DNA of 64,000 bases. Origin: Ariolimax columbianus. Taxonomy: Eukaryota > Mollusca > Gastropoda > Stylommatophora > Arionidae. A program made the translations under genes and the position numbers. This document shows positions 32,491 through 60,900 of the stretch, piece after piece. The stretch lies in contig JAVGWX010000007.1 in assembly GCA_036924085.1 (NCBI GenBank), positions 32,720,453-32,784,452 of the forward strand. The letters run 5' to 3'. Under the pieces are notes generated by a model, which worked only from the letters and a program-made list of their open reading frames with translations, ran no database searches and was not told the origin of the DNA. How positions within the stretch are numbered: position 1 is the stretch's first letter; each line of letters starts with the position of its first letter.

Positions 32491-32495
32491 CGATT

Positions 32496-38600: not shown

Positions 38601-39345
38601 TTATGTAAAGTACGACAGATGGTATGTCGGGGTGGGTCCTCATTTCATCAGGCGACAGACAGGGCTGTGTTCTCTTACGACTTCTCGTTGTTCCCTACAT
38701 GAATACAATCCCACAAGAGGCAAATACAGAACAGGAAAATATTAACGAATTGCTCTTTGCAGACGACCAATGTTTGATCCACTCCAATGAAGAAAACCTA
38801 CAACGTCCTTTTGACTCACTTTATTTAAACTGTCAAAAGTGCGAGATGAATATCAATTCATCAAAAAGAGAGAGAATGAATATATGTAGAAAGCACACCA
38901 CACTTGATATTCATGTGAATGAAACACAAATAAAACAGGTAAAAGAATTTAGGAATTTGGGAACTGTTTTACTGAGGATGGCAGACTCGATAGATCTATA
39001 GAGACTAGAGTACAGAGGGCAAACCCTGTCACCTACCAGCTGTCTCCACTACTAAAACACCCCACGATTTCATTCCAAGAAATAAAGTAGATGATAAATA
39101 ATATCTTCATCTCAACTCTGCGTCAGACATGGGCATTGGATAAGATTCAGGAACGAAAGTTAGGAACGAAAGTTAGGCACGTGCGAAGTGCAGTGACTAC
39201 GAAATGGCACTTACTAACAACACTAGAACAGACAGAATCGCAAATAAGAGTATTCTGTAGAAGGTTGGAACAATTCCCTGCTTACAGTACATAGAGCAAC
39301 AAAAAATGAATTGGTTTGGCCATATTGTTCATTCAACCTCGTCTG
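38600..39345 (+). mobile_element. RTE-like LINE RT to C-terminal remnant, cut by the rRNA chimera
   Basis: Frames on the plus strand give 'GDRQGCVLLRLLVVPYMNTI' (block B, about 38642-38710), 'INELLFADDQCLIHSNEENLQ' (block C with FADD, about 38740-38800), 'CQKCEMNINSSKRERMNIC' (block D), 'KQVKEFRNLGTVL' (block E) and, after several frame breaks, 'KMNWFGHIVHSTSSG' at about 39304-39345. Homology stops there, exactly where rDNA-like sequence begins, so the chimera was probably inserted into this old element. Confidence 0.75.
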
Positions 39346-39800
39346 GTCCGTATCAGGAAACGTGGTCCGTCCGTGGTGATTTATCTAAGGCTTATAGCAG
39401 AGCTCGACAGTACGTCTCGCTGGTGGTCCGACTCTCGCAAAGAGCTTGTGACCGGCAAATGGAAAGCAGGAATCGTTGCCTCGAGGCCCTGCGTTCTCCT
39501 ACGGAGAAGGGCAGGCCGGCAGGTCAAATTGTCTCTAGTCCCAGTGAAATTCATCGCCGAGGTCGTTGGGATCCGTTCTGCACAGAGCGCTGCCATCCCT
39601 CCTCGAGCGAGCCCTGTCGGTCGGTCGTCTGGTGCGTGTGGGAGGCCCCTGTCAGGCGGTCCTAGGTCGACGGAGTGAGGGACGGGTGGAACAAACCGTC
39701 CGTCCGTCCCGTCAGTCGGTCCCTGCGGCCGTCCCAGCGAGGCTTTTTACACACCCTTCCTCCGCCGACCGGTGTGTGCTGTACGTACGTCTCCGACAGA
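39345..39800 (+). other. 5' external transcribed spacer-like sequence
   Basis: Lies directly before the 18S start and is homologous to the minus-strand sequence 55470-55930 (for example CGTCTCGCTGGTGGTC and CAAAGAGCTTGTGACCG). GC-rich with TCGGTCGGTC repeats, as expected near a ribosomal promoter transcript. Confidence 0.6.
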
Positions 39801-41080
39801 TATCTGGTTGATCCTGCCAGTAGTCATATGCTTGTCTCAAAGATTAAGCCATGCATGTCTAAGTTCAAACTGTCTCACGGTGAAACCGCGAATGGCTCAT
39901 TAAATCAGTCGAGGTTCCTTAGATGACACGATCCTACTTGGATAACTGTGGCAGTTCTAGAGCTAATACATGCTTACCAAGCTCCAACCCTCGCGGAAAG
40001 AGCGCTTTTATTAGTTCAAAACCAATCGTCGTTTCCCCTCGCGGGGTTGCGGCGTCCCCACTGGTGACTCTGGATAACTTTGTGCTGATCGTATGGCCTC
40101 ATGTGCGTGCGACGCATCTTTCAAATGTCTGCCCTATCAAATGTCGATGGTACGTGACATGCCTACCATGTTTGTAACGGGTAACGGGGAATCAGGGTTC
40201 GATTCCGGAGAGGGAGCATGAGAAACGGCTACCACATCCAAGGAAGGCAGCAGGCGCGCAACTTACCCACTCCCGGCACGGGGAGGTAGTGACGAAAAAT
40301 AACAATACGGGACTCTTTCGAGGCCCCGTAATTGGAATGAGTACACTTTAAACCCTTTAACGAGGATCTATTGGAGGGCAAGTCTGGTGCCAGCAGCCGC
40401 GGTAATTCCAGCTCCAATAGCGTATATTAAAGTTGTTGCAGTTAAAAAGCTCGTAGTTGGATCTCAGGCGCAGGCGGGCGGTCCGGCTCGCGCCGGTTCA
40501 CTGCCCGTTGTCTCCTGCCCTACCGTATGCCGGCTCTCTCCCACGGGTGCTCTTCGCTGAGCGTCCTGGGTGGCCGGCGCGTTTACTTTGAAAAAATTAG
40601 AGTGTTCAAAGCAGGCCTCGGCTGCCTGAATAATGGTGCATGGAATAATGGAATAGGACCTCAGTTCTATTTTGTTGGTTTTCGGAACTGGAGGTAATGA
40701 TTAACAGGGACAAACGGGGGCATTCGTATTGCGGCGTTAGAGGTGAAATTCTTTGATCGCCGCAAGACGAGCTACTGCGAAAGCATTTGTCAAGAATGTT
40801 TTCATTAATCAAGAACGAAAGTCAGAGGCGCGAAGACGATCAGATACCGTCGTAGTTCTGACCATAAACGATGCCGACTAGCGATCCGCAGGCGTTGCTT
40901 CGATGACTCTGCTGGCAGCTTCCGGGAAACCAAAGTGTTTGGGTTCCGGGGGAAGTATGGTTGCAAAGCTGAAACTTAAAGGAATTGATGGAAGGGCACC
41001 ACCAGGAATGGAGCCTGCGGCTTAATTTGACTCAACACGGCCAACACTGAAATGATTGACATGCCGAGACCACTTTTCTG
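39801..41080 (+). pseudogene. 18S rRNA pseudogene, 5' two thirds
   Basis: Starts TATCTGGTTGATCCTGCCAG and runs colinear with 18S through CCAGCAGCCGCGGTAATTCC (about 40389) and GTTAAAAAGCTCGTAGTTGG (about 40442) to GACTCAACACGG (about 41040). After that, about 12 bases are missing and homology fades by about 41080 in GATTGACATGCCGAGA. The start has TAT for TAC and there are scattered substitutions (GAATTGATGGAAG). Not a functional gene: the 3' domain with the decoding site is absent. Confidence 0.93.
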
Positions 41081-41424
41081 GGGTCAAATATGGAACTGGT
41101 GCTGGATTTAGACCCTCAGAAATCTGGGGTTATGCCCCCTGTGGCTCGGTTCATCTGCATCCAGTGCTCTGATAAAGGAATTGACGGAAGAGCATTATCA
41201 GGAGTGGAGCCTGAGGCTTAAATTAACTTAACACGCCAATACTGTAGAATGACTGTCAAAAAGAGAGCACCTTCGTGGGGTTTAATAGTGAACATGTGCT
41301 GGTATTAGACCCACGAAAGACAGTTCAGTCTCCAAACCCCAAAATGAAAGAGCGCCTGCTACGGTAATCTGGTCTTCACCCTGCAGAAATCGCAGGTTCC
41401 AGAAACTTGGCCATTGACAAACTA

Positions 41425-41650
41425 AAAGCCCTCTATTGATACGGTCTGGCTAATATTGAACGGGTGCTGGAAATAGACCCTCTGAAGACAGGTCAGTTTT
41501 ACCCTACTAATGACAGGGCTTTGCTACGGTAATCCTGCTAATCCCGAGAGGAGCCGCAGACATTTGGTTCACGTACTAGGCGGATAGGCCAACGGTGCGA
41601 GGTGAGGGATTACGGCCGAACGCCTCTAAGCCAAAAATCCCGCCCAAAAG
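41425..41650 (+). pseudogene. 28S rRNA 3'-end fragment, first block
   Basis: GACAGGTCAGTTTTACCCTA, CGAGAGGAGCCGCAGACATT and CGAACGCCTCTAAGCC are in the order of the 28S 3' terminus. The sarcin-ricin loop is altered (CCCGAGAGGA for TACGAGAGGA). Confidence 0.85.
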
Positions 41651-41964
41651 CAGCCCAGCACGAATGCAAAGGGAGGCTTCGACATGGTGGGGACCTGGGG
41701 GCCACGCTGCAGCCCGGCCCTGTCAAGCCGCAGAATGAGGTCTCTGCCGTCCGCTGATAAAAGCGGGCGGGAAGCTGCTCGATATTCACCCCATACGGCG
41801 ATGAGGTATGAAATCATTTGTAGAAGACTTAGTTCTCGGTCGGGTGCCCTAAGCAGTAGATCAGCTACCTCACTGCGAACTGCTGAGACCCAACCCTTGA
41901 CCATGAGATATGTCCGCTCCCTAGGCGGACAACATCTCCGTGCAAGACTAGGCTTGTCACCTGG

Positions 41965-42165
41965 TCAAATGCACTATTTCGAGAGGAATTACAGGTCGCT
42001 GACATTTGGTCCACGTGCTTGGCTGATAAGCTACCATCTGAGGGAATACGGCCGAACGCCTCTAAGCCAGAATCCCGCCCAAAATCTCAGCACCGCTGAG
42101 ATGGGAGGCTACGACATGGCTGGGGCTTGTGTCCCGGCCCGATCGAGCCGCAGGAATGCACCTGG
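41965..42165 (+). pseudogene. 28S rRNA 3'-end fragment, second block (duplication)
   Basis: TTTCGAGAGGAATTACAGGTC, CATTTGGTCCACGTGCTTGG and GAACGCCTCTAAGCCAGAAT repeat the 28S terminus. The block is bounded by the direct repeat ACCTGGTCAAATGCAC / ACCTGGTAAAATGCAC and is absent from the minus copy, so it is a later duplication of about 200 bp. Confidence 0.8.
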
Positions 42166-42717
42166 TAAAATGCACTCCTTCCTCGCTCTTTGCATCTGTC
42201 TGCTATCAGTCATTCCAATGGACGCAGAAGAGATGCAGTCCAGCGGACATTGCACCTCCTGTCCTATAGTGACAAGCTCCCGGGTGGCGGGGAATGCTAG
42301 GCGTACCATCACTGCAGATGAGCCGAGAAAATAAAGCGAGCAAAAAGATACCTCACTCATATGCATATGCCACGTTTCTGGCAGGACGTGACGATCCTGG
42401 GAAAAAGTCACACTGGACTGCCTCTCTTCCGGGATAGTACAAACTAGTACATAGTCCATCATATCATTGCCAAACGCTATAGACACGAGTAGGGAAGACT
42501 CGATAGTCCTGCAAGACAACTTCCCAAGAGAGACAACTCTGACCAAAAACAACTGCTGTCTTGCAGTTAGGCTGGGGACAGCCAAAGGCTAAGGAGGCCA
42601 ACCCTACAGAAACGCCTGTTGAAATCGGATGCACTGAGCCACTGGCTAACAAATTAAATCAGTGCAACGTAAATATCGCTGTAAACAGCGTACGATGAAG
42701 AAGAAGAAGAAGAAGAA

Positions 42718-43768
42718 TCTGCTCAGGAGTCAATATTGTTGAGTCTTTATACAAGATAATAGAAACAGACCCTCGACTATAGACTACATGGACATTTTAT
42801 TCACCTTTACTGTACTGATATGCATGCGTTTAACAAAGAATATTTATTGATGGAAGTTAACGATAATGTTGGAGTCCAACTCGCTCACGTACTTAAGAAT
42901 GACAGCCAGTTATTAAATAAACAGGACAAGTTCATATGTTATCACAATATCGACCACAGAGCAGCTCTCTAGTAGTGGAACACTTTAAACCACGACATAG
43001 ATTGCAGCAGATTGTTTCGAAAACTAAAGATATCAATTATATTCAGAATCATAAATTTGTAAAATTCGTAAGACAAATCATCTATCATAAATTTTGTCAG
43101 AAATTGTATGTCTCTAAAAGTTCATACGTAAAGTGAACAATGTTTTAAAATAATAAACGCCATGTCAATTTTATTCACATATTTGTCTGTACTGGTAATT
43201 CTTGTAAATGTAATCCTAAACACAAAAAAGACCTGGTTGTACAACTTAAATGCTATTCATTTTACAACGATTTATCTAACGTGTAAATGCTAACTTCTAA
43301 CCATTCCTACACATTAGTGAAGTGGTCATAGTAAGCAACGCAGCCTAGTTTATGTCCATTTAACGAAGAATGACAATAAACATGTGTATTAATAACTTTT
43401 GACTAGAAAATAATCTTAAATTGTGACAGCCAGTACCTGACTCCAATTGTCTGTTTTGAAGTTCTTGAACAACTACAGGAGAAGTATCCACAAACAAATG
43501 AGTTAAAATTCCTTGACTAGAAATCTACATAAAGACACCTTTGAACAGTACATAAATTAGTAAACATTTTCAAATATAAATCCTATTTTATTTTAGGAAA
43601 AAATTTGCTTTTCTTTTTGTAACAGTAATTTACATCTTCACTTTTAGAAAATGTGTCAGTCTTAAATCAACATATTTGTTTAAAAAAAATTATACATGTA
43701 TTTAACGTGAATGTACACTAATCTCACTCATTGTTCCTAGCTAATTTCAACAATTCATTAACATCCAA
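42718..43768 (+). other. Upstream region of receptor gene 2
   Basis: AT-rich, with no element recognised. The stretch CATTGTTCCTAGCTAATTTC just before the start codon matches the sequence upstream of receptor gene 1, so this part was duplicated with the gene. No TATA element can be assigned with confidence. Confidence 0.45.
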
Positions 43769-43982
43769 ATGAGTAGAGGAAATATGTCAGTAACTACAGC
43801 TGATGAGATATATTTATCGAGTAATAAACTAATAAGTGATGACGCATGTTTACTGATCCAGTGGATACTGTACGGTGTGGTTAATCAATTAATCAGTATA
43901 TTTGGAATGACTACCAATATAATCAATATCATATGTTTTATCAAGCAAGGATTCAAGGATCCAGTCATTATCAGTCTCGTTG
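43769..43982 (+). CDS. Receptor gene 2, exon 1
   Basis: ATG at 43769; ends CTC GTT G before the donor GTAATATAG (phase 1). The next intronic bases (TTTGTTTGTTAATGTTTC) match the intron of gene 1, confirming common descent. Confidence 0.88.
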
Positions 43983-46900
43983 GTAATATAGCCAAGTTCT
44001 TGTTTGTTTGTTAATGTTTCTTTGGTATACTCATACTGTAAGACATTGCTAAGACAAATGTGTCGTGTTGTTGAATGTGTGTTGGAATGACGTACGAAGA
44101 GTCAAAACGGCTTATCAAAGCCAGATACATGACCAAATGGGAAACCGAACATACTGGTTACACCAAAAACGATGCCTATTACCAGTTGAACAGAAGAGAG
44201 CAGGTCGTTGTCTTCAGACTTCGCACTGGCCACAATAGACTAAGGTACCACCTATTCAACAAATTAAAGATAGGTGGTACCGACGAATGCCCGTGCGGTA
44301 CCGGTAAAATGACCGCTGAACATCTGCTGCAGAACTGCCCGACATACGAGGATCAGAGAGAGCAGATGTGGCCATCACCAGTGGAACTGCAAGACAAGCT
44401 ATATGGCAGTGTCGACAGCCTCAGGATGACCGCCGCTTTTTTCGAAAAAATAATGGTTACTGTCTGACTGCGTACGAAGAAGAAGAAGAATGTGTGTTGC
44501 ATTGACTAGTTCTAGTAGGTCAATATTTAGTTAATAATGTCTACCCACTGTACCAAAATTGGGAATCCCCGGATCTCTTGAACACGAAAACTCAATTAGC
44601 TAAGCAGACGTAATGGGTGTGTCGTAAAAGGTAAGGAGATGGCATGAGACTAGCAACATCGTCATGTAATACACCGTGCCACACAGACCCCGGCAGTTAG
44701 AGTTCATACGTGTATTAGCACTGACTTGCATCAAATAAAAGTTTACAAGAGAATATGAGAGAGAGGACTAACGTCTGATCTGGCAAAACATGCTGATCAA
44801 ATTGTTAGTCAGATTCAGGTAAAATATGTTGACCAAGGTGTTCAACTCCCTTCAGTGGAGTTGTCTCTCGGAACGAGTCTGTTTGCATTAATGGATGCCT
44901 GACAGACGAGGTGGAGATCTACGTGATTCCCGTAGTAGTGAGTATCACGCAGATGAAGCAAATCAAACACAATGCCCTGGACACCCCTGCCACCGTCATC
45001 AGCACGCTCGGGATGCGAAGGAAAAAAAAACTTGCAACTGTAGGCCGTTATCAGTGCGCACAAATAATAAAGTTACCCATCGTAGACATTCAACAACAAC
45101 ATCAACAACAATAATAACAGTACACACGTGTATTGACACGTGCCTCCATAAAGTGAAAGTCTGAGCAGCGGAATATTTAGAGAGCTCAATTCTCATGCCA
45201 CATTTAACGGGAGTGATCGGAGTTTGTGACATAAGATCAGCATGTGGGTCAGGTAAGATATACTTATCATAGCCGATGTCTTTGTCGTGGATCCTGGTAA
45301 CAGGCAGCATTACAACAGTCTGGTCAGTGAGATGGGAATCGACACTTTAATTCCTATAGTAAAGAGTCTGACATTGCACTACAGTCAGGATGATGAAGTC
45401 CACCTTATCACGCCAGACTCGGGATGTAGGAACAGCCACTGTAACCTGCAACTAAAGGAACGTCGACAAGACCTAAATTAATTCAGCAATGAGTGGTTTA
45501 ACAGCAGCCATTGCAACAAATCCCATTTTCGTCACGCTGCAGTCGACCCAACTTAAAATGGGTATATGGCTTACTGTTGTCTTAATAATGTGATGTGCGT
45601 TGTATTTGGTGTATGGTGAGGATAAAATATGCGCTGGTCAACAATCTCACTCTTATCCCGAATTACCTTGGGTCAGTGCCAAGTCGAGACGACTGGAAGT
45701 AACTCAGGGTGCAAGCACTCTGGTCTTACCTCCCGTGAGACTAGGGAATCGCTTTAAGCCTGCGGGATTCGACGCCCACCGTTTCCGTTCATCAACGTGA
45801 GAGGCAAGTGCCTTAACCTCATGACTACAGAGACCCCCATAACCGAACTGGTCATCTAACATCATAAAAATCTGAGGCCTAGAGCAAATAAAGTAGCCGA
45901 CGACAATATGTGCCTTTGGATCATCTTGACGTTAGTTCCTTCACAAAGGTCAACTGATTTGATGACCTGTTGTTTTTCTCTGGCGGTGATTGGTTCACAT
46001 GCCACTCGACAGAGCCCAGGCCGTGAAGCCATTACTCGTGTTGTTAAAGTTATGCGTTGACGGTTGATAGACAACAAAGTGTTGGTGTAGCTTCCTGTTT
46101 AGTTTGCGCAGTTAATGTAGTATTCTCCCCAACTTCTTTATTATGTCAATGAAAAGATGTCAGCTACTAGTGTTATTGTTTGATTCTGAAGAATACTGTT
46201 TGGTCGTAAAGACGTTTGTGTTAATGTTTCTTTTTTTATTTCACAGTTATTGAGCCATGAATTTTTAGTCGACTTTCAACATATTTTCACAACAACAGCT
46301 TTTGGTCTAAGACATCATATCATGCATGATTTCAACTACTTTGTGTTCCTATATATGTATGAAGTGCGTTCAAAAAGTATCCTTCTTCTTCTTCTTCTTC
46401 ATCGTACGCAGTCAGACATCATCCTTTATTTTTTTCGAAATAAGCAGCCGTCATCCTGAGGCTGTCGACACTGCCACAGAGCTTGTTTAGTGTTGCCACT
46501 GGTGATGGCCACATCTGCTCATTTTGATCCTCGTATGTCGGGCAGTTTTGCAGCAAATGTTCAGCGGTCATTTTCCCGGTACCACGCGGGCATTCGTCAG
46601 TGTCCCCTATCTTCAATTTGTTGAATAGGTGGTACCTCAGTCTATTGTGGCCAGTGCGAAGTTTGAAGACCACGACCTGCTCTCTTCTGTTCAACTGGTA
46701 ATAGGCATCGTTTTTGGTGTAGCCAGTATGTTCGGTTTCCCATTTGGTCATGTATCTAGCTCTAATAAGCCGTTTTGACTCTTCGTATGTCATACTAGTA
46801 TCTGGTTGCGGTAGTTTTGCACCTTCTTGTGCCAGTCTGTTTGCCTCCTCCTTGCCTTGGATGTTGCAGTGGGATGGAACCCACTGTACCACTACCCTTT

Positions 46901-49900
46901 TTGGTGCGTACTGCTGGTATAGTTGACAGAGTACTGCTCTTAAATCATTAAGTTCAGTATTTTTCTGGCTTTTTAGTGCTGTGACTACGGCCAAGGCACC
47001 TGTAAGCAGGACTATCTGGCTCTCATTCCTTTTACCTGTCACCATTTCTTCCACTGCCGCCCTCGGTGCTTCTGCAACCGCTCTGAAATTTTTTTTGTAT
47101 TTTCCAGTAGCGAATGACAGTGTTATTTTTCTGCCATTTGGTAGGTTAAGAAATGCTGCTGCCCCTCCGTTCTGTGTTGTGTTTGTTACAGAACCGTCGG
47201 TGTATGCATGGCTCAAAGTAGTATCTCTTCTTTCTTTTTCAGTCTGGCAGTTTTTGTTTCCAATACCTGGTATATTTTCTACCACCTCTGGAAATATATG
47301 CTGCCTCCAGGTAGGTTTTCGTACAGTAGGGATGGGCTTTGGTGTTAGTGCGTTCATGGGGTCTTCGTGCATCTTTGCTTTGGCTATTTCTGCAAAGTTT
47401 CTCCGCTTTAGTTTCCCATTTCCCAAATTGTTTAGTCTCTGGTGCATTGGAAGGTCAGTCAGTCTTCTGAGTTTCTCTGATTGCTGCTGGGCTCTGCAGT
47501 CTCTTCTGTCGGTCATGGATTGCAGTTTTGTAATCTTCTCAAGTTCTACAATTGGCGTTGACTTCATCGCTCCTGTTATAACTCTCATGGCTTGGTTTTC
47601 GAGTTTGCTAATTTTATCGAAGTTCGCCTTTGCTGCTGTTGTCTTAACCGCAATGCCATACTCGAGAACTGGTCTCACTCTTCCAGTGTACAGTTTCTTT
47701 AGTATACTTCCGTCTGCTCCCCAGCTTGTGCCAGCAAGTTTCCTCATGATTGCCATTCTTTCTCTGGCTCTCATTCGGTTTCTCTCGATCTGTCTTTTCC
47801 ATGTCATGCGCCGATCAAATGTGACTCCCAAGTAGTTTGGGTTGTCGTTTTGCTGCAGGTATGTGCCATTAAGACTTAATTTGGTGTTTTGGGGTTTATT
47901 TGATACCGAGAATATTGTACATGTCGTTTTTTCCTCGTTTATTTTGACCAGCCATGAGTTCGCCCACTCTTCCAGCGATGTTAGGGCCTGCTGCATCCGA
48001 TTTCTTGGTATGATGAGATTCTTTTCAGAGGTCCACATAGCCAGATCGTCTGCAAACATTGAGCTATGGACTCTTCTTGGTATATTCTCTATTATGTTAT
48101 TTATATACACCAGGAAGAGTGTGGATGACAGTACTCCCCCTTGGGGTACTTCCTGCTCAAGTGTCATCTTTTTGCTCATCTGCCCTGGTACTTGAACTCT
48201 GGCCGTTCTGTTTTTGAGGTAGTGACTAATCCATTTGTACATTTTCCCACAAACTTCAGTTCTCACTAGCTTGACTCTAAGTCCCTCTTTCCAGACTTTG
48301 TCAAATGCCTTTTCTAGGTCCACCCAAACCGCTACTGTGTGTTTTTGCTCCTGGTAGGCATCCTCTATTTCCTGGGCTATGAGGATAACCTGATCATCAG
48401 TGGATCTGTGCTGTCTAAAGCCTGCTTGCTATGGAATTAGTATGTGTTTTTCTTCCAGATGCCACATAAATCTGTTGTTTATCATACGTTCCATCAGTTT
48501 GCCTGCGCAGCTCAGTAGGCTGATAGGCCTGTATCCACTTGTATCTGTTTTCTCTTTTCCTTTCTTTGGTACTGGTACAAGTACTGCGTCTTTCCATGCC
48601 TGGGGTACTTCTTCTTCTTCTGCGTACACAGTCAGACAGTAACCATTATTTTTTCGAAAAAAGCGGTGGTCATCCTGAGGCTGTCGCCACTGCCATAGAG
48701 CTTGTCTTGCAGTTCCACTGGTGATGGCCACATCTGCTCTCTCTGATCCTCGTATGTCGGGCAGTTCTGCAGCAGATGTTCAGCGGTCATTTTACCGGTA
48801 CCGCACGGGCATTCGTCTATACACCCTAACTTCAATTTGTTGAATAGGTGGTACCTCAGTCTATTGTGGCCAGTGCGAAGTCTTAAGACAACGACCTGCT
48901 CTCTTCGGTTCAACTGGTAATAGGCATCGTTTTTGGTGTAACCAGTATGTTCGGTTTCCCATTTGGTCATGTATCTGGCTTTGATAAGCCGTTTTGACTC
49001 TTCGTACGTCATACTAGTATCTGTTTGTGGTAGTCTTGCACCTTCTTTTGCCAGTCTGTCTGCCTCCTCGTTGCCTTGGATGTTGCAGTGTGATGGGACC
49101 CACTATACCACTACCCTTTTTGGTGCGGACTGCTGGCACAGTTTGCAGAGTGCTGCTCTTAAGTCATTAAGCTCAGTATTTTTCTGGCTTTTTAGCGCTG
49201 TGACTACGGCGAGAGCATCTGTAAGCAGGACTATATGGCTTTCATTTTCACTGTGTGTCACCATTTCTTCCACTGCCGCCCTCAGTGCCTCTGCCTCCGC
49301 TCTGAAATTGCTTGTGTACTTACCAGTAGCGAATGACAGTGTTATTTTTCTGCCATTTGGTAGGTTCAGGAGTGCTCCTGCCCCTCCGTTCTGTGTAGTA
49401 TTTGTTACAGAGCCGTCGGTGTATGCATGGGTCCAGTCCATGCTTGGGTAGCTTTTCGTTATGAAGCTTAGGGTAGTATCTCTCCTTTCTTTTTCAGTCT
49501 GGCAGTTCTTGTTTGCAATACCTGGTATATTTTCTACCACCTCTGGACATATATCCTGCCTCCAGGTAGGTTTTCGTATAGTAGTGATGGGTTTTGGTGT
49601 TGTTAGTGCGTTTATGGGATCTTCGTGCATCTTTGCTTTGGCTATTTCTGCAAAGTTTCTCCGCTTTAGTTTCCCATTTCCCAAATTGTTTAGTCTCTGG
49701 TGCATTGGATGGTCGGTCAGTCTTCGGAGTTTCTCTGACTGCAGCTGGGCTCTGCAGTCTCTTCTATCGGTCATGGATTGCAGTTTTGTAATCTTTTCAA
49801 GTTCTACAATTGGCGTTGACTTCATGCCACCTGTTATAATTCTCGATGCTTGGTTTTGAAGTTTGCTAACTTTATCGAAGTTCGCCTTCGCTGCTGTTGT

Positions 49901-52900
49901 CCATGCCGCAATGACATACTCGAGAACTGGTCTCACTCTTCCAGTGTACAGTTTCTTTAGTATGCCTTCGTCTGCTCCCCAGCTTGTGCCAGCAAGTTTC
50001 CTCATGATTGCCATTCTTTCTCTGGCTTTCATTCGGTTTCTCTCAATCTGACTTTTCCATGTCATGCGCCGATCAAATGTGACTCCCAGATAGGTTGGGT
50101 TGTCGTTTGGCTGCAGGAATTTTCCATTTAGACTTAATTTGGTATTTTGGGGTTTTAATGAGAGCGAGAATATTGTGCATGTGGTTTTCTCCTCGTTTAT
50201 TTTGACCAGCCATGAGTTCGCCCACTCTTCCAGTGATGTTAGGGCCGTCTGCATCCGATTTCTTGCTATGGTGAGATTCTTTTCAGAGGTCCACATAGCC
50301 AGATCGTCTGCAAACATTGAGCTCTGGACTCTTCTTGGTATATTCTCTGTAATATCGTTTATATATACCAGGAAGAGTGTGGGTGACAGTACTCCCCATT
50401 GGGGTACTCCCTGCTCGAGTGTCACCTTTTTGCTCATCTGCCCTTGTACTTGGACTCTGGCCGTTCTTTGTTTGAGGTAGTGGTTGATCCATTTGTACAT
50501 TTTCCCACATACATCACTTCTTCTTAGCTTGACTCTAAGTCCGTTTTTCCAGACTTTGTCAAATGCCTTTTCCAGATCCACCCAAACAGCTACTGTGTGT
50601 TTCTGTGCCTGGTAGGCATCTTCTATCTCCTGGGCTATGAGGATGACCTGGTCCTCAGTGGATCTGTGCTGTCTAAAGCCGGCTTGCTGTGGAATTAGTA
50701 TTCGTTTTTCTTCCAGATGCCACATCAGTCTGGTGTTTATCGTCCGTTCCATCAGCTTGCCGACACAGCTCAGTAGGCTGATGGGCCTGTATCAATTTGG
50801 ATCTGTTTTATCCTTTCCTGTTTTTGGTACTGGTACCAGTATTGCGTCTTTCCATGCCTGGGGTACAATACCCCTTTTCCAGCTTTGGTTCAGGACTGAT
50901 AGTAGTTTCCTCTTCGCTGTTTGGCCCAGCCCCATCAGCATTTCGTTTGTTATCCCGTCTTTTCCGGGAGATTTCCTTTTCTTTAAGGTTCTCGTGGCCT
51001 CTTCCATTTCATTCATTGTTAATTTTGCCATCATATGCTCTTCTGGTACCATATTGATGTTGTCGTGACCCTTTTGCTCTTCACTAATGTATGTATGCCT
51101 ATCTGCAGGAACATCAATGTGGTTTACTCTGGCATAATGTTCAACAAAGGCGTTTGCTGCTTTTTTTCCAGTGAGCGTGTTGTCACCCTGTTTGATTGAA
51201 ATTTGTCTTTTTGATGGCGTTTCATCATTCATGGCTCTGACTAGCTTCCATAGTTTGTTCCCTTCTTTGTCTAAATTGAGGCTTTCTGTTTTGTTTTTCC
51301 AGCTTTCTCTTGCTGTTTGGTTTAGAGTGTACTTGTATTTCGCCGTGGTGGATTTCAGGGCGATATTTGCCTCCATAGATTGTTTTCGCTCTGCCATGTT
51401 CCTAGCATTTGATACTGCATCTTCCGCTTTCTGCAACTCATCATTCCATTAGGGCTTATAATTTTTCCTTGCCCCTCTTAGGATGGTTTCAGTGGCAGCT
51501 TGCATTATTGCTTTGCTTAGGCTTTCCACCATGGGCTTCATTTTGTTGTTCCGTGTGTTGATGGTTTCACACAGCCCATCTGTCAGGCTTGCAAATCTGT
51601 CCCAGTCGGCTCGTTTGAAATTCCAACGTGGGAACGGCTTTGTTTCCTGTAGGCCTACTTCCATATCGATTTCTAGCCTAATTGGCATGTGGTCGCTACC
51701 TGCCAATTGGTTAAGCACCTGGCGATCTATTTTATGGTGAATGTCCACCGTGGAAAAGGCCAAATCTGGAGTAGAGGTGGTATGCCATGTTCTAGAATAG
51801 AAGCTAGGGCTATCCTCTGCCCTAATGATTAGATAGAGATTTGTGTCTATCTCCCAATCTTCCACTTCGTCACCTCTGCTGTCTGTGTCCGAGTATCCCC
51901 ATCTCTCCAAGTTGCTGTTGAAGTCTCCAACTACTATGCAGTTGGAGTCTTTGACTTCCATACTCGAGAGCGATAGGTCTTTGTTTGGTGGTCCGTTCAG
52001 GTTGAGGATGCAGATCTTCGTCTCCTGAGCCATTATGCCAATTCCTACAATTTCTGCTTGTCCGGTGTGATTGACAGATACCGCGCTCCTCGGTATGCAG
52101 TTACTGGTCAGTATAAGAACCCCTCCTTTGTGACCTTCTCTATCCAGACGGAAGGCCTGGTATCCTCTGATTGAGAATTTGTGGTTGTTGTTGAGGTGCG
52201 TTTCTTGGATACATGCCACGTCAATCTTACTTTCATGCAAGTGATGTGTTAGGCAAAGCTTTTTGTTAATGACTCCTTCCGCATTCCACTGTAGTATTCT
52301 TAGGGTCTTGTGTTTTTGGTCAATAGATGTTACCCCATAGCCATGTGACTCGACTCCACAATACATGGGTGGGTGACCACCAGTAGTCAAGGGTGGGCCC
52401 CTTCGAAGCGTGAGGCCCGGCACTGTCGCTACCTGGCGGGACTCCACATGATGAGCGCCATACTTTTTTCTGATAGGTTGTCTCGTCATCATACTGCGAT
52501 TTACGTTGCAGTGTTTCGTTAAGCCTGTGGTCCAGTGCATCCGATTTCAACAGGCGTTTCTGTAGGGATGCCCTCCTTAGCCTTTGGCTGTCCCCAGCCT
52601 ATCTGCAAGGCAGCAGTAGTTTGTGATCAGAGTTGTGTCTCTTATGGAAGTTGTCTTACAGGAATAACGAGTCTTCACTACTCGTGTCTATAGGGTGCGG
52701 TGATGATATATGAGATATGATATATGATATGGACTATGTACTGGTTTGTACTAACCCGGAAGAGAAGCAGTCCAGTGTGTCTGTATCCCAGGATCGTCAC
52801 GTCCTGCCAGAAACGTAGCATATGCATGTGAGTGGGGTATCTCTTTGCTCCCTTTATTTTCTCGGCTTCTCTGCAGTGATGGTATGCCTAGAATTCCCCG

Positions 52901-55900
52901 CCACCTGGGAGGTTGACACAATAGGGCAGATGTGCAATGTCCGCTAGCCTGCATCTCGTCTGCGTCCATTGGTATGGCTGATAGCATACAGAGGTAGAGA
53001 TCGAAGCAGGAGTGCATTTAACCAGGGGACAAGCCTGGTAATGTCATGGAGATGTTGTTCGCCTGGTGTGCGGACATATCTCATGGTCAGGGGCTGAGTC
53101 TCGACAATTCACAGTGAGGTGGCTGCTCTACTGTTTACGACACCCCGACCAAGAACTAAGTCTTCTGTTGATGGTTTCGCACCTCATCGCCGTATGGAGT
53201 GAATATCGAGCAGCTTCCCACCCACTTTGATCGGTGGACGGCAGAGACCTCTTTCTGCGGCTCGACCGGGTGGGGCTGAGACGCGAGCCCCAGGTCCCAA
53301 CCATATCGAAGTCTTCCATCTCAGTGGTGCTGAGATTTTGGGCGGGATTCCGGCTTAGAGGCGTTCGGCCGTAATCCCTCACATGGTAGCCTCGCGCCAT
53401 TGGCTTATCAGCCTAGTACGTGAACCAAATGTCTGCGACTCCTCTCGAATTGAGCAGGATTACCGTATCAAGGCCCTGTCATTAGTAGGGTAAAACTGAC
53501 CTGTTTTCCGAGGGTTTATTACCAGCACCCGTTCACTATTAGACCGGACGAATCAATAGAAGGCTTTTTTTAGTTTGTCAATGACCAGGTGTCTGGAACC
53601 TGCGATTTCTGCAGGATTAAAACAAGATTACCGTAGCAGACGCTCTTTCGCGGGGACGGCGTGGCCTAGTGGTTAAGTGGCACGGCTCACAACCAGAAGG
53701 TGCTGGGTTCGATCCCCATCACAGCACCGGTCGTTACCCCGGGGAAGCAAACCCTTAGAAAATGCAGGAGGAAGCAGATCCTTACATAAAATGCATGCTG
53801 AAGTCGGATGCACTGGGCCGACAGGCGCAAAATAAAAACCACAGTGTAACGCATACACGCCTTGGGAAATAAATAAATAAGGCGAACGCAAAAAAACAAC
53901 AACAAAAAAAAAAAAAGACGCTCTTTCATTAGGAGGTTAAAAAACTGACCTGTCTTCCGTGGGTCTAATACCAGCACACGTTCACTATTAGACCCAACGA
54001 GAGTGCTCTCAGTCTGTCAGTCATTTTACAGTGTTAGCATGTTGAGTCAAATTAGGCCGCAGGCTCCACTCATGGTGGTGCCCTTCCGTCAATTCCTTGG
54101 TCGAACACTGAATGCAGGCCAATCGAGCCACAGCGAGCGTAGCCCCAGATTTCCGATGGTCAAAATCCAGCACCCGTTCCATATTAGACCCTACGAAAGT
54201 GCTCTCGGCCTGTCGATCATTTCAGTGTTGGCCGGGTTGAGTCAAATTAAGCCTAAGGCTCCACTCCTGGTGGTGCCCTTCCGTAAATTCCTTTAAGTTT
54301 CAGTTTTTTGCAACCATACTTCCCCCGGAACCCAAACACTTTGGTTTCCCGGAAGCTGCCCTCAGAGTCATCGAAGCAACTCCTGCGGATCGTAGTCGGC
54401 ATCGTTTATAGTCAGAACTACGACGGTATCTGATCGTCTTCGCGCCTCTGACTTTCGTTCTTGATTAATGAAAACATTCTTGACAAATGCTTTCGCAGTA
54501 GCTCGTCTTGCGGCGATCCAAGAATTTCACCTCTAACGCCGCAATACGAATGCCCCCGTTTGTCCCTGTTAATCATTACCTACAGTTACGAAAAAAACAA
54601 AATAGAAACGAGGTCCAATTTCATTATTCCATGCACCATTATTCAGGCAGCCGAGGCCTGCTTTGAACATTCTAATTTTTTCAAAGTAAACGCACCGGCC
54701 ACCCGAGACGCTCAGCGAAGAGCATCCGCGGGAGGACCGGTAGACGGTAGGGCAGGAGACAACGCGTAGTGAACCGGCGCGAGCCTGACCGCCCTCCTGC
54801 GCCTGAGATCCAACTACGAACTTTTTAACTGCAACAACTTTAATATACGCTATTGGAGCTGGAATTACCGCGGATGCTGGCACCAGACTTGCCCTCCAAT
54901 AGATCCTTGTTAAAGGGTTTAAAGTGTACTCATTCCAATTACGGGGCCTCGAAAGAGTCCCGTATTGTTATTTTTCGTCACTACCTCCCCGTGCCGGGAG
55001 TGGGTAAGTTGCGCGCCTGCTGCCCTCCATGGATGTGGTAGCCGTTTCTCATGCTCCCTCTCCGGAATCGAACCCTGATTCCCCGTTACCCGTTACAAAC
55101 ATGGTAGGCATGTCACGTACCATCGACATTTGATAGGGCAGACATTTGAAAGATGCGTCGCCGGCACATGAGGCCATGCGATCAGCACAAAGTTATCCAG
55201 AGTTACCAGTGGTAACCCCGCAACCTCGCGAGGGAAAACGACGATTGGTTTTGAACTAATAAAAGCGCTCTTTCCACGAGGGTCGGAGCTTGGTAAGCAT
55301 GTATTAGCTCTAGAATTGCCACAGTTATCCAAGTAGGATCGTGTCATCTAAGGAACCTCGACTGATTTAATCAGCCATTCGCGGTTTCACCGTGAGACAG
55401 TTTGAACTTAGACATGCATGGCTTAATCTTTGAGACAAGCATATGACTACTGGCAGGATCAACCAGATATCTGTCAGAGACGTACGAACCACACACACTG
55501 GTCGGCGGAGGACGGATGTGTACAAAGCCTCACTAGGACGGCTGCAGGGACCGACTGACGGACGGACGGTTGTTCTTTCCCTCACTCCGTCGACCTAGGA
55601 CCGCCTGACAGGGGCCCGTACACACACCAGACGACCGACCGACCGGGCTTGCTGGGGGAGGGATGGCAGCGCTCTGTGAAGAACGGATCCCAACGGCCCC
55701 AGCGATGAATTTCACAGGGACTGGAGACATTTTTTTGCCTGCTGGCCTGCCCTTCTCCAGAGGGTTGGTCGGGCGAGGACAGGGCCTTTAGGCAGGAGTC
55801 CTGCTTTCAATTTGTCGGTCACAAGCTCATTGCGAGAGTCTGACCACCAGCGAGACGAACTGTCGAGGTCTCCTATAATCCTTTGTCAAAGCACCACTGA

Positions 55901-57906
55901 CTGTCAAAGTTTCTCGATACGGGTCACAGTTACGCACCTTTGCCAAGGGTACGACACCACAAATTTCGTCCCTCTACCTAGCCGGGGAGAGGCGGGCGAT
56001 CGTTTTCGGCAAGCCCGCGCTATCTCTCCGTCTGGTGGGACTCAGATCACTGTACGAATACTGGGTCAGAGTCAATCGCAGCGGCGAGAGACCTACCCCA
56101 GAAAAAAAAGTATCCGACCTTGGAGCCAGACACTTACAAATACTCACTTGGAGGTTTGAAACCATAATCTTCTTCAACATATTTTTGGGGGGACTCCACA
56201 CACCTCTTCAAGGGGTTCCGTTAATGTTGGAAGCATTTCATGAGGCCTCATTGGAACTCCCCACACACCTCGTCCAGCAGTCCCGTTAATGTTGGAAGCA
56301 TTTCATGAGGCGTCATTGGAACTCCCCACACACCTCTTCCAGCGGTCCAGTTAATGTTAGAAGCATTTCATGAGGTCTTTTTGGAACCTCACACACATCT
56401 TCCAGCGGTCCAGTTAATGCTAGAACCATTTCATAAGACCTCATTGGAACTCCCCACACACCTCTTCCAGCGGTCCAGTTAATGTTAAAAGCATTTCATG
56501 GGGTCTTTTTGGGAATGTAGTTGAGTCATCGTGTTTCGCATAATGTTGTCTAGTGACTCAAATCGGATTAATTTCAGTGGAATTTTCAGTATGTGAATCA
56601 GTCACAAATCGCAGGTAACCATATCAAGAGATTAGTGAGCCTGTGGAAATGAACATAAGCGGTAGACCAGACCCAATTCATCAACTTAAATGAAACCAAC
56701 AAACTACCGTATTTCATCTGAGAATTGGTCACTGCAGACTATTAGAACATCTATACCGACTGAAGATCTCGCACACCGATAAATGTCCTTGTAAAACAGA
56801 GGCCAGAATTCTGAAAACATTCAACAGGAATGTCCACTCTATAAGGAAATGAGATGCCAGACCTGGCCAGAGGGTGTGGAGCTGAGATAAATTATGTGGG
56901 GTATCCGCTACCAACCTGGTGAGGTATACAGACCATCATGGCGACTGGTTTGCAGATATATCATGAACAAAGATCCTGCACGCAAAGAAGAAAGAGAGCC
57001 TGGCGATCCAGAGGAATGTTGTGTTTGTCCAAGAAAGTACGAATCTGATGCGAAAAATTGGCGATTGCGTTACCATTATGGAACTGCCAAGTTCCCGCAC
57101 TGCCAAATCCTCGATCAAAATGGAAAGCACCGAAGTAATGCTTATCAGCACCTCATCCGCATGTTCTCGGGTGGTAGCTCGCGGTTCTATAAGACTAAGG
57201 TCCGTACTTGGTCAATGATTTCATTACTTTGGCTTGTTGAGGACCTATCCGCTCTCCAATAATGTGCAGCCATCTTGGAAGCGATTGCACCATTCCTTAA
57301 TCTGTGTGATTTTCATGACATGGTCAACGAAAACCTAACCTGAAGATGTTTGAGCAGTCGCGCCAGATGATAAACTGTTCCCGCTGCTTTCCGGTATCTG
57401 GTATGAACCTCTTTGTCGGGGGACGGCGTGGGTAAGTGACACGGCTCACAACCCTGATGGGTGCTGGATTCGATCCCAATTATAGCACTGGCCGTTACCC
57501 CGGGGAAGCAAACCCTTAAAAAATTCAGGAGGAAGCAGACCCTTACATAAAATGCATGCTGAAGTCATATGTACTGGGCCGACAGGCGCAAAATAAAAAC
57601 CACAGTGCAACGCACACCGCTTTTGGGGATTAGAGAAATAAGGTGAAAGAAAATAAAAAATAAAAAAACATAAAACCTGTCGCACCTGCCGTATTCTGAG
57701 AAAATTCTGGCGATGTAGCATCTCCTGAGCCTGCTAGAGAGCCACGTTCTGAGTGCTCAAATTAAGAGGCCTCGGGAGTCTGCCCACCTTCAAGAGATGT
57801 CGTCTTTGCCTCGCTGATATGTATGCTATACCTATAACAGGTTACGTCCTAAGTGGTCAAGTGATTTTGCAGTTTCTGTTCGTCGGAACTAATCGGAAAT
57901 ATATTA

Positions 57907-57963
<57 letters not shown>

Positions 57964-60900
57964 CTATTCTTTCAACACCGGCATCACTGTGGTACAAACT
58001 TACAATGGTTGATCATTTTTGGATTTTCCATTTTCTTGAATGAGATTTTACTTCTGTGCAGATCAGCATTGTTTCCGGTACTCTGAACTTGTGAGCGTTC
58101 GAGTGGTTGTTTGTTGTTGTTGTTGATGTCGCTAATGTCAATCGTGCTGGAGTAAATTACTCTTGACGACTTTAGTTTATGGCGGGTTACAGCGGCTCTC
58201 CGCACGGGACGGCGTGCTGGAGAAGATGTACCGGGTCTTCCTGGTTGTGCAATGGCAGGCTCCTCAGCTTACAATTATGAGGTACACAGTACCGACCATG
58301 ACACCGCTTCCCCCCCCCCCCCCAACTTTGTTAGCTAGACTTTGTGCTGCTCTGGAAGAGAACTTTGTGGAAGTGAAGTGATGTCTTGGTCAGTATCTTT
58401 CACCTGACCCTGACTGCCATAGTCTAATCCGTATGTTTAATCTGAATCTGACTAACATAGTCTGATCAGCATGTTTAATATGAATCTGACTTACATAGTC
58501 TGATCAGTATGTTTATCCTGGCCCTGACTAACATAGTCTGATCAGTATATTTAATCTGAATCTGACTAACATAGTCTGATCAGTATCTGTCCCCTGACCC
58601 TGACTAACATAGTCTGATCCCTATGTTTAATCTGAATCTGACTAACATAGTCTGATCCGTATGTTTATCCTGGCCCTGACTAACATAGTCTGATCAGTAT
58701 GTTTAATCTGAATCTGACTAACATAGTCTGATCAGTTTCTTTAACCTTACCCTGACCAACATAGTCTGATCAGTTTGTTTTGTCTGACCCTGACCAACAT
58801 AGTCTGATCAGTTTGTTTATCTATACTCTGACCAACATAGTCTGGTCAGTTTGTTTTGTCTGACCCTGACCAACATAGTCTGATCAGTTTATTTATCTAT
58901 ACCCTGACCAACATAGTCTGATTAGTTTGTTTATCTATACCCTGACCAATATAGTCTGATCAGTTTGTTTATCTATACCCTGACCAACATAGTCTGATCA
59001 GTTTGTTTTGTCTAACCCTGGCTAACATAGTCTGATCAGTTTGTGTTTCCTGATCCAGAATAATATTTTCTGATCAGTCTATGTTGCTTGTCCGGACGTT
59101 AGTCTCCTCACCTCGAACGAGTTGTAGAAGGTTTGGAACGCTTGTCAAATCATTCTCGATCATCACAATTTGCCCTGTCAGTCTAATTGACGTAGTGCTG
59201 TATGTATCCCTTCAGTTCACAAATATCTTCAATATGTATGCAACTGCTACTACCGCCAATAACGGCACCCAGGTAATGTCGCTGTGGGCACTCAAATTGT
59301 TCCAACTTTGCCAGTTCCTTATCGCTAGTAAAACTCAACGGCTCACGTAAATACACGAGGGGCCTTCAAATGAAAACCTCAAATATATTTTGTAGTAAGT
59401 TTTAAATGTTCGATATTCTGTATATTAACAGGTCTGGCTATATCTGACATGGGAGGTCTTGCAACTGTAATATGGATCAACATCAGTTATACACCGAGTT
59501 TCTTAACAGCGGATCTGCCTTTTGAATCCACGGAACTCACATACGGCTCTTTTGGAATGCTTCATACGTCCTTTTCCCGTATCACTTGCTGGATCACAGC
59601 CTTTATCACACTAGAGAGATGTCTGTGTATAACTGCCCCGTTGAAGGTATGTTTCCTCTTCTTCTTTGCGCTCGGTTTCGTATGCTAATTGTGCAGAAAT
59701 AGCCAAAGCAAAGATGCACGAAGATCCCATAAACGCACTAACAACACCAAAACCCATCACTACTGTACGAAAACCTACCTGGAGGCAGGATATATTTCCA
59801 GAGCTGGTAGAAAATATACTAGGTATTGCAAACAAAAACTGCCAGACTGAAAAAGAAAGGAGAGACACTACCCTAAGCTTCATAACGAAAAGCTACCCAA
59901 GCATGGACTGGACCCATGCATACACCGACGGTTCTGTAACAAACACTACACAGAACGGAGGGGCAGGAGCATTCCTGAACCTACCAAATGGCAGAAAAAT
60001 AACACTGTCATTCGCTACTGGTAAGTACACAAGCAACTTCAGAGCGGAGGCAGAGGCACTGAGGGCGGCAGTGGAAGAAATGGTGACACACAGTGAAAAT
60101 GAGAGCCATATAGTCCTGCTGACAGATGCTCTCGCCGTAGTCACAGCGCTAAAAAGCCAGAAAAACACTGAGCTTAATGACTTAAGAGCAGCACTCTGCA
60201 AACTGTGCCAGCAGTCCGCACCAAAAAGGGTAGTGGTACAGTGGGTTCCGTCACACTGCAACATCCAAGGCAACGAGGAGGCAGACAGACTGGCAAAAGA
60301 AGGTGCAAGACTACCACAAACAGATACCAGTATGACGTACGAAGAATCAAAACGGCTTATCAAAGCCAGATACATGACCAAATGGGAAACCGAACATACT
60401 GGTTACACCAAAAACGATGCCTATTACCAGTTGAACCAAAGAGAGCAGGTCGTTGTCTTCAGACTTCGCACTGGCCACAACAGACTGAGGTACCACCTAT
60501 TCAACAAATTGAAGATAGGGTGTACCGACGAATGCCCGTGCGGTACTGGTAAAATGACCACTGAACATCTGCTGCAGAACTGCCCGACATACGAGGATCA
60601 GAGAGAGCAGATGTGGCCATTACCAGTGGAACTGCAAGACAAGCTCTATGGCAGTGGCGAGAGCCTCAGGATGACCGCCGCTTTTTTCGAAAAAATAATG
60701 GTTACTGTCTGACTGTGTACGCAGAAGAAGAAGAAGAAGTATGCTAATTGTATGCCACCAGATGAGTTGCCTCCATGAAGTGACACGTCAGTCGCAGGTG
60801 CTCAATGGTTCCCCGCAGTTTGTCTTTTATGATACTTTCCCCCGGCCAGGTCTTTTCACGGGAGCTTTGATGCAGTGAACATGTTTGCAGGATGTGTTCA

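What the first reader, a model, noticed from the sequence alone, without database searches (positions are those of the whole stretch)
39345..56150. An rRNA chimera appears to be the 5' leader of a LINE
Seen: the same unusual assembly (ETS, 5' two thirds of 18S, 18S-28S junctions, 28S 3' end, spacer) occurs at 39345-42717 (+) and 52560-56150 (-). Both copies share the same 12-base loss and the same 18S break. In the minus copy it runs straight into the leader and open frame of LINE copy B; in the plus copy it ends in the tail of the same LINE family. Their positions do not mirror the inverted receptor genes, so a segmental duplication does not explain them. Inference: a LINE has captured a processed or recombined rRNA chimera as its leader, possibly with sequences from near the Pol I start.
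Basis: partly seen in the sequence, partly recalled or inferred. Interest (0 to 1): 0.88.

Follow-up and report, generated by a model that had tools for sequence, protein, structure and literature searches.

The report
LINE with renewable ribosomal-RNA leader
A very abundant jumping gene in this (probably gastropod) genome begins with a piece of the host's own ribosomal RNA precursor, and the evidence suggests that separate lineages of the element have refreshed that piece by copying it anew from the host.

Summary
The rRNA chimera is the constant 5' leader of a LINE family (EN-RT-RNase H). Of 30 LINE loci, 27 run at least 100 bp into the leader and none shows another leader in the 1.5 kb seen. 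Copies followed to their 5' end start at one base, TCTGGGG, with target duplications in most and (GAA)n tails. The plus-strand copy belongs to a second family: a 3.5 kb non-autonomous element, leader plus LINE 3' tip.

Between three subfamilies the 5'ETS differs by 3.5-14% and the degenerate 18S/28S 'chassis' by 9-18%, but the 18S 5' part by 0-2 of about 1,220 bases. ETS and chassis group the subfamilies differently. Host pre-rRNA snapshots nearly always match the leader 18S. So the ETS+18S module evolved in host rDNA and was captured separately.

Capture is also seen directly: in 23 of 25 5.8S-bearing loci a pre-rRNA piece is fused in sense 5' of a LINE-family copy; one composite lies inside a single target duplication. 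17 of 18 scored RNA 5' ends cluster at three ITS1 sites, as expected of processing intermediates.

Pol I transcription is untested; no rDNA array was found for comparison.

The parts
48609..56102 (-). Full-length LINE copy (copy M): rRNA-derived leader, EN-RT-RNase H coding part, (GAA)n tail
   Evidence: Self-BLAST, Pfam EN/RT/RNase H, 5' end shared with 6 of 8 extended copies, tail
55470..56102 (-). 5'ETS-like module starting TCTGGGG
   Evidence: Same start in LINE, non-autonomous and T3 subfamilies; 18S begins at leader position 634
54232..55469 (-). 18S 5' part (leader positions 634-1873), nearly invariant between subfamily consensuses
   Evidence: 2 of 1240 mismatches LINE vs non-autonomous, 0 of 1219 non-autonomous vs T3; Rfam SSU
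52541..54231 (-). Older shared chassis: degenerate 18S repeats, 28S 3' end, unidentified spacer
   Evidence: Alignment and divergence; 28S match 53076-53477
53654..53902 (-). Later insertion of a dispersed repeat (looks like a tRNA-type SINE by eye) inside the leader
   Evidence: Similar copies at 34272-34520 and 57428-57675; a gap in the other leader copies aligned
51449..52540 (-). Start of LINE coding part: endonuclease frame
   Evidence: PF14529 / PF03372
50792..51436 (-). LINE coding part, second frame (no Pfam hit); this copy's frame is broken
49103..50752 (-). LINE coding part: reverse transcriptase and part of RNase H
   Evidence: PF00078, PF00075
46389..48608 (-). 5'-truncated LINE (89% identical to copy M) joined directly to the tail of copy M
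   Evidence: tail-to-head junction and one target duplication GGATACTTTTT flanking the pair
56105..56115 (-). Target duplication GGATACTTTTT, 5' side of the pair
   Evidence: read from flanks
46372..46382 (-). Target duplication GGATACTTTTT, 3' side of the pair
   Evidence: read from flanks
39338..42717 (+). Non-autonomous element: leader (5'-truncated by about 170 bp) plus LINE 3' tip CGTACGATGAAGAAG(n); no target duplication was established for this copy
39801..41040 (+). 18S 5' part of the plus copy, up to the shared loss
28145..29980 (+). 5'-truncated LINE fragment of the same family with target duplication GATTTCAGGCTACTC
   Evidence: duplication read from flanks
44087..44490 (+). 5'-truncated LINE fragment with target duplication AATGTGTGTTG
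   Evidence: duplication read from flanks
59692..60735 (+). 5'-truncated LINE fragment with target duplication GTATGCTAATTGT
   Evidence: duplication read from flanks

Best explanation
This is a dispersed endonuclease-type LINE family with no ORF1 found. Its roughly 3.3 kb 5' leader is built from host ribosomal-RNA precursor, and a non-autonomous partner (leader + LINE 3' tip) uses the same kind of tail. SHOWN: constant leader and 5' end in the copies examined; target duplications in most; recurrent sense fusion of pre-rRNA pieces to the 5' side of LINE-family copies, one composite inside a single target duplication; three subfamilies whose ETS+18S module has a different history from the rest of the element. 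INFERRED: during target-primed reverse transcription the RT, on reaching the element RNA's end or an 18S-like stretch inside the leader, switches to a pre-rRNA molecule and copies it to that RNA's natural 5' end. A switch inside 18S onto a primary or early pre-rRNA yields ETS+18S ending at the fixed base TCTGGGG. That gives a full-length element with a fresh, host-current 5' module, which can found a new subfamily. A switch onto processed intermediates yields the ITS1-5.8S-ITS2 composites, which appear to be mostly dead ends. The fixed 5' base is most simply the Pol I start or an early ETS cleavage site; renewal may matter because the rDNA start region drifts fast with its Pol I factors (recalled background; this last step is speculative).
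For: Leader: 27 of 30 LINE loci (one is the window's own) extend at least 100 bp past the leader/ORF junction; none shows another leader in the 1.5 kb upstream held. The same first base is reached by 6 of 8 LINE copies followed upstream, 4 of 4 extended non-autonomous copies and 3 of 3 T3 copies. Target duplications: 4 of 4 non-autonomous (11-14 bp); of 6 full-length LINEs 13 bp and 11 bp found by script, 12 bp with one mismatch and one long (about 50 bp, with mismatches) read by eye, one ambiguous, one none. Modules: LINE vs non-autonomous 2/1240 mismatches in 18S against 264/2045 elsewhere, Fisher p 4e-54; non-autonomous vs T3 22/622 in ETS and 0/1219 in 18S (p 3e-11), but 227/1290 in chassis. 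Sites where exactly two families agree: ETS NA=T3 67, LINE=T3 18, LINE=NA 1; first 370 bp of chassis 5, 26, 29. Host 18S snapshots (L073, L075, L079): of 742 sites covered by at least two, the agreed base equals the leader at 701, goes against it at 2 (1464; 1811, where the third snapshot agrees with the leader), and 39 are split; L075 and L079 carry the LINE family's bases at both V4 differences. Capture: 23 of the 25 best-scoring 5.8S loci fused in sense; single duplication TTATACAGTTC around L053. 17 of 18 scored RNA 5' ends fall in three clusters (0 of 100,000 random draws reach this), so the templates were RNAs with defined ends. On the element side 5 of 21 independent joins lie at leader positions 1820-1870, close to where the module swap is inferred.
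Against: No rDNA array was seen in the searches answered, so neither the transcription start nor the exact host 18S could be compared directly. Searches with the SSU and LSU families did not complete. Pol I transcription, RNA and activity are untested. L073 carries its LINE in the opposite orientation; L068 shows no LINE within 1.4 kb. L051 and L017 gave no target duplication, and L058 lies in a satellite. Consensuses rest on 6, 5 and 3 copies taken from high-scoring hits. The fuller T3 chassis comes from L052, L055 and L059, other copies than the T3 module (L093-L095), and L052 is 8-9% from the other two; within L093-L095 themselves the first 370 bp put LINE-NA (11.6%) and LINE-T3 (12.3%) about level and NA-T3 at 18.1%. 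Single copies do not decay quite evenly: in non-autonomous copies the chassis departs 0.9-2.5% and 18S 0.3-1.0%. The three cluster positions of L051, L071 and L078 were read by eye. Element-level selection on 18S, or gene conversion with rDNA, could also keep 18S uniform, although neither explains the ETS/chassis conflict as simply. The window's LINE pair could instead be an insertion into a (GAA)n tail.
Confidence: 0.78

Rival explanations
1. The leader was captured once; afterwards the 18S part stayed unchanged because the element needs an intact 18S domain (for example to bind ribosomal proteins or ribosomes for cap-independent translation).
For: All three subfamilies share the same chassis and the same break and loss, so one ancestral capture is likely. 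18S is nearly identical between masters, and in non-autonomous copies 18S departs somewhat less than the chassis.
Against: ETS and chassis group the subfamilies differently, which one capture with constraint does not produce. Agreement includes variable parts of 18S, and the two V4 differences sort with the ETS grouping and with independent host snapshots. The sequence downstream of the break is degenerate 18S.
Confidence: 0.1
2. The subfamilies exchanged 5' modules among themselves (RNA-RNA or DNA recombination between elements) rather than with host rRNA.
For: Tail-to-head joins exist (window 46389-56102; L017; L021), so element-element jumps or adjacent insertions occur.
Against: After exchange, ETS and 18S would diverge alike. 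Non-autonomous vs T3 differ at 22/622 ETS sites but 0/1219 18S sites, p 3e-11.
Confidence: 0.08
3. DNA-level gene conversion between dispersed elements and the rDNA array renews the 18S part.
For: Would homogenise 18S in master copies.
Against: Would not by itself set the same 5' base in every subfamily nor create composites whose RNA ends cluster in ITS1. Single LINE copies have decayed in 18S too (1.9-3.8%).
Confidence: 0.06
4. The composites are LINE insertions into pre-existing dispersed rDNA fragments, and the leader is such a fragment by coincidence.
For: L073 (inverted LINE) and L068 would fit.
Against: 23 of 25 are in sense; L053 has one target duplication around the whole composite; RNA 5' ends cluster at three sites while element-side joins vary.
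Confidence: 0.04

Closest known systems
LINE template-jump chimeras with small RNAs and 28S rRNA (mammalian L1; PMC13174262, passages read)
   Same: Other RNAs, including 28S rRNA in mostly sense orientation, joined to LINE copies, attributed there to ligation or template switching
   Different: There 18 28S/L1 chimeras. Here pre-rRNA is the constant leader of a family with thousands of first-look candidates and appears to have been renewed in separate subfamilies
R2 and R1 rDNA retrotransposons, SIDEs and in vivo template jumps (PMC3414825, abstract and outline read; PMC2718515, passages read)
   Same: Link between a LINE and rRNA transcripts; internally deleted non-autonomous partner using the LINE's machinery; U12 snRNA and tRNA sequences at R2 5' ends by template jump
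   Different: R1/R2 insert into 28S genes. Here copies are scattered over chromosomes with ordinary target duplications, and the rRNA part travels as the element's own leader
5S-rRNA retropseudogene made by LINE template jumping in Dictyostelium; Persaeus SIDE of CR1 (PMC6740152, passages read; Szafranski 2004 seen only in its reference list)
   Same: Template jump from LINE RNA to an rRNA; short internally deleted partner
   Different: By its title a retropseudogene, and a deletion derivative without rRNA homology; no renewable 5' module in what I read
28S-derived SINE of mammals (Longo et al., seen only as a reference title in PMC13174262; the name SINE28 is recalled)
   Same: Non-autonomous element with rRNA-derived sequence
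   Different: The element here is 3.5 kb, carries ETS+18S+28S, and shares its head with an autonomous LINE family

Membership tests
Endonuclease-type non-LTR retrotransposon (LINE) | Endonuclease and reverse transcriptase domains in the coding part | tested here: met
   PF14529/PF03372, PF00078, PF00075
Endonuclease-type non-LTR retrotransposon (LINE) | Variable-length target duplications, 5' truncation, simple 3' tail | tested here: met
   (L031 without, L016 ambiguous)
Endonuclease-type non-LTR retrotransposon (LINE) | Named clade (I, Nimb, Ingi and the like) | not tested
   RNase H suggests the I group (recalled); no reference tree was made
rDNA-targeted LINEs (R1, R2) | Insertion at one site in rRNA genes | tested here: not met
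   Copies lie on many large contigs, with unrelated flanks in those inspected
rDNA-targeted LINEs (R2) | HDV-like ribozyme at the 5' end | tested here: not met
   No such Rfam match at E up to 5 in L039 and L004, which carry the 5' ends; 5' 120 nt no better folded than shuffles
Short internally deleted element (SIDE), for the non-autonomous family | 5' and 3' ends of a LINE without its coding part, moved by that LINE | tested here: inconclusive
   Structure met: leader + LINE-like tip, tails and duplications; that the LINE supplies the enzyme is inferred
SINE | Pol III-type head and short length | tested here: not met
   3.5 kb with ETS/18S/28S head; transcription itself not testable
Template-jump chimera | Foreign RNA and LINE inserted in one event (one target duplication) | tested here: met
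   Met in L053; not found in L051 and L017, ambiguous in L058; not tested in the other composites
Pol I-transcribed element | Transcript starting at the element's first base made by Pol I | not testable with these tools
   No RNA data; no rDNA unit to compare

The most novel reading that the evidence does not exclude
A LINE lineage that keeps itself transcribable by 'refuelling' from the host: each new subfamily starts when reverse transcription finishes on a host pre-rRNA, so that the element's 5' end is always a current copy of the Pol I transcript start, ETS and 18S. The genome thereby holds a dated fossil record of the host's own rRNA precursor and of its ITS1 processing sites.
Probability: 0.35. 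Interest if true: 0.93.

Novelty: new variant of a known kind. Interest (0 to 1): 0.85.

Why it matters
Many LINE insertions are 5'-truncated, and how LINEs acquire new 5' regions is poorly understood (recalled background). Here the donor (host pre-rRNA) is recognisable, replacement has apparently happened in separate lineages, and the donor's conserved 18S and fast ETS act as two clocks that separate capture from later copying. It also ties a LINE's life cycle to rRNA precursors and possibly the nucleolus, and gives fossil evidence for pre-rRNA processing ends. Many near-identical dispersed 18S copies could also mislead 18S-based surveys of this species.

Tried and rejected
Segmental duplication of the two window copies: rejected, both belong to high-copy dispersed families. 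Assembly artefact: rejected, single copies carry their own duplications and decay. HDV-like ribozyme at the 5' end: no match. Fold of the first 120 nt: z -0.64. ORF1 in the leader: 5 LINE copies share no long frame (L028 has 128 and L031 119 codons, not shared); the 4 non-autonomous copies share a 166-codon stop-free stretch without ATG, not followed up. A repeat of the start motif inside the ETS as sign of a spacer promoter: none. 5.8S as an independent mobile repeat: rejected because its borders vary on the LINE side, it lies in sense to the LINE, and one duplication flanks a composite. Truncation of two LINE copies at nearly the same 18S base (L024, L036) was noted but n = 2. Genuine rDNA: not found by 5.8S (40 scored of 53,434 first-look candidates) or ITS search (41 matches, 85 first-look candidates). 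Ten paper searches listed no paper that I recognised as describing a LINE with an ETS/18S leader (open-licence library only, no preprints; most hits seen only as listings). My notebook entry counts 24 fused loci because it includes the inverted L073; the sense count is 23.
Full report
WHAT WAS CLAIMED.

THE OBSERVATION. Rfam finds SSU rRNA at 39804-40948 (+) and 54326-55466 (-), and the 28S 3' end at 41515-41911 (+) and 53076-53477 (-). The copies align at 90% over the ETS/18S part. The minus copy continues without a break into a coding part with endonuclease, reverse transcriptase and RNase H matches. The window lies in a 2.29 Gb genome. Of the 120 protein relatives of the LINE listed, 10 show an organism name, 9 of them gastropods (Littorina, Elysia, Batillaria, Bradybaena) and one a bivalve's symbiont, so a gastropod is likely; the species is not known.

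ANATOMY. Two kinds of element carry the leader. (A) A LINE of about 7.5 kb. A search with 981 bases of coding sequence, starting 60 bases past the first ATG, gave 6,007 first-look candidates and 40 scored matches; the best 30 became loci, one of them the window's own copy. With 1.5 kb upstream held for each, 27 of 30 extend at least 100 bp into the leader; 3 (L010, L017, L018) begin within about 40 bp of the first ATG; none shows a different leader. Of 8 followed further upstream, 6 reach the same first base, TCTGGGG (L025 with an internal deletion); L024 and L036 stop within 18S. (B) A non-autonomous element of about 3.5 kb: the leader, then CGTACGATGAAGAAG(n), nearly the LINE's own 3' tip. 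The leader search had 1,063 first-look candidates, and its 40 scored matches are 97-100% identical. All 4 copies extended downstream (L004, L005, L006, L008) start at that base and have 11-14 bp target duplications. The window's plus copy is a 5'-truncated member. For the 6 LINEs that reach the 5' base, the 3' flanks show duplications of 13 bp (L014) and 11 bp (L026) by script, 12 bp with one mismatch (L025) and a long imperfect one (L028) by eye; L016 lies in a local tandem repeat, and L031 gave none at its tail. The leaders of 5 LINE copies share no long frame, so no ORF1 was found.

THE LEADER HAS TWO AGES. Aligning leader consensuses of 6 LINE and 5 non-autonomous copies, mismatches are 89 of 621 in the ETS (positions 1-633), 2 of 1240 in the 18S 5' part (634-1873) and 175 of 1424 in the rest; 18S against everything else gives p = 4e-54. 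Single LINE copies depart from their own consensus by 2.5-6.2% in ETS, 1.9-3.8% in 18S and 2.3-4.3% in chassis; non-autonomous ones by 0.4-0.5%, 0.3-1.0% and 0.9-2.5%. So inserted copies decay in 18S too, though in the non-autonomous copies the chassis varies two to three times more, perhaps because several masters differ there. A third LINE subfamily, T3 (4,435 first-look candidates, 40 scored at 97-100%; copies L093-L095), also starts at TCTGGGG. Its 18S equals the non-autonomous one at 1219 of 1219 compared sites and the ETS differs at 22 of 622. A longer T3 chassis taken from three other copies (L052, L055, L059; L052 is 8-9% from the other two) differs from the non-autonomous one at 227 of 1290 (17.6%) and from the LINE's at 118 of 1313 (9.0%). 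Within L093-L095 the first 370 bp of chassis give NA-T3 18.1%, LINE-T3 12.3%, LINE-NA 11.6%. Sites where exactly two families agree: ETS NA=T3 67, LINE=T3 18, LINE=NA 1; these 370 bp of chassis NA=T3 5, LINE=T3 26, LINE=NA 29. So the 5' module and the chassis have different histories. Because ETS changed while 18S did not, the module evolved where 18S is constrained, most simply in host rDNA, and was acquired separately.

INDEPENDENT HOST SNAPSHOTS. Three composites (L073, L075, L079) contain host 18S running to its 3' end and into ITS1. At 742 leader sites covered by at least two of them, the agreed base equals the LINE leader at 701; at 2 sites two snapshots agree against it (1464; 1811, where the third agrees with the leader and L075 is poorly aligned); at 39 they split. 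At the two V4 sites where the families differ, L075 and L079 carry the LINE family's bases.

CAPTURE SEEN DIRECTLY. A 5.8S search scored 40 dispersed matches of 53,434 first-look candidates. I fetched the 25 best-scoring of the 40 (L051-L060, L068-L082). In 23 the pre-rRNA piece is followed in sense by leader or LINE sequence; L073 has a LINE in the opposite orientation; L068 shows none within 1.4 kb. L053/L054 and L075/L080 look like copies of single events, leaving 21 independent sense composites. Element-side joins range from the first base (L056 and L069, both joined to the same ITS2 position) to inside the coding part (L081); 5 of 21 (L052, L055, L059, L071, L072) lie at leader positions 1820-1870, close to the 18S break. 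L053 is enclosed by one duplication, (AA)TTATACAGTTC; L058 lies in a satellite and is ambiguous; L051 and L017 gave none; the others were not tested. Identities to the L053 ITS probe range from 83 to 100%, so captures look spread over time and some look recent. The 5' ends of the captured RNAs fall at ITS1 map positions 206-210 (5), 254-258 (6, three read by eye) and 380-388 (6), with one at 357; 17 of 18 scored ends lie in these clusters, against 0 of 100,000 uniform draws reaching that (the longer pieces L052, L073, L075, L076, L079, L080 and the duplicate L054 were left out; L068 is included). Such ends are expected of processing intermediates, so the templates were most likely RNAs.

MECHANISM. 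The simplest account is template switching during target-primed reverse transcription. After or while copying element RNA, the RT moves to a pre-rRNA and copies it to that RNA's 5' end. Switching within 18S-like leader sequence gives a new ETS+18S module ending at the natural 5' end of an early pre-rRNA; elsewhere it gives the composites. Shown: fusion, single integration (one clear case), separate module histories, constant 5' base. Inferred: switching during reverse transcription rather than RNA ligation; identity of the 5' base with the Pol I start; any promoter role.

THE WINDOW PAIR. The minus LINE and the truncated LINE behind it (46389-48608, 89% identical) share one flanking duplication, GGATACTTTTT. 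L017 and L021 show similar tail-to-head joins. This may be a jump between two LINE RNAs, or an insertion into a (GAA)n tail; the data do not separate these.

LITERATURE. L1 chimeras with 28S rRNA (18 cases) and other RNAs are described (PMC13174262, passages), as are R2 SIDEs and R2 template jumps (PMC3414825, abstract) and R1/R2 5' junctions (PMC2718515, passages). In a study of gastropod non-LTR elements the terms 18S and ribosomal do not occur (PMC11203168, term counts and passages). Ten searches listed no paper that I recognised as describing an ETS/18S leader on a LINE, within an open-licence library and mostly from listings.

LIMITS. No rDNA unit was available; SSU and LSU family searches did not complete. 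Samples are high-scoring hits, not random copies. No RNA data.

Noticed in passing
window 46372-56115: Full-length LINE and a truncated, 89%-identical LINE joined tail-to-head inside one target duplication GGATACTTTTT; similar joins in L017 and L021.
   Followed up: partly
window 34272-34520, 53654-53902, 57428-57675: A dispersed repeat of about 250 bp that looks like a tRNA-type SINE by eye, one copy inserted in the LINE leader; not classified.
   Followed up: no
L003 (from about 2610 in leader orientation): A non-autonomous copy is interrupted inside 18S by other sequence that looked like another retroelement by eye (perhaps Penelope-like, a guess; no search run).
   Followed up: no
L052 about 700-1000 in 5.8S orientation: A 28S-like fragment sits upstream of the ITS1-5.8S piece, suggesting two successive jumps onto rRNA.
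   Followed up: no
L096, L097: The two T3 copies followed downstream lack about 1.4 kb and about 145 bp near the endonuclease region, so some T3 copies may be non-autonomous.
   Followed up: no
L024, L036: Two LINE copies are truncated within 2 bases of each other in 18S (leader positions 1596 and 1598), perhaps an RT stop or RNA end.
   Followed up: partly
L004, L005, L006, L008 (positions 11-508 of the non-autonomous element): The four non-autonomous copies share a 166-codon stop-free stretch without ATG across the ETS.
   Followed up: no
window 32492-33313, 61998-62474, 58390-59044, 37382-38058, 56196-56512: Several minisatellites with 12, 12, 38, 49 and 65 bp units.
   Followed up: no
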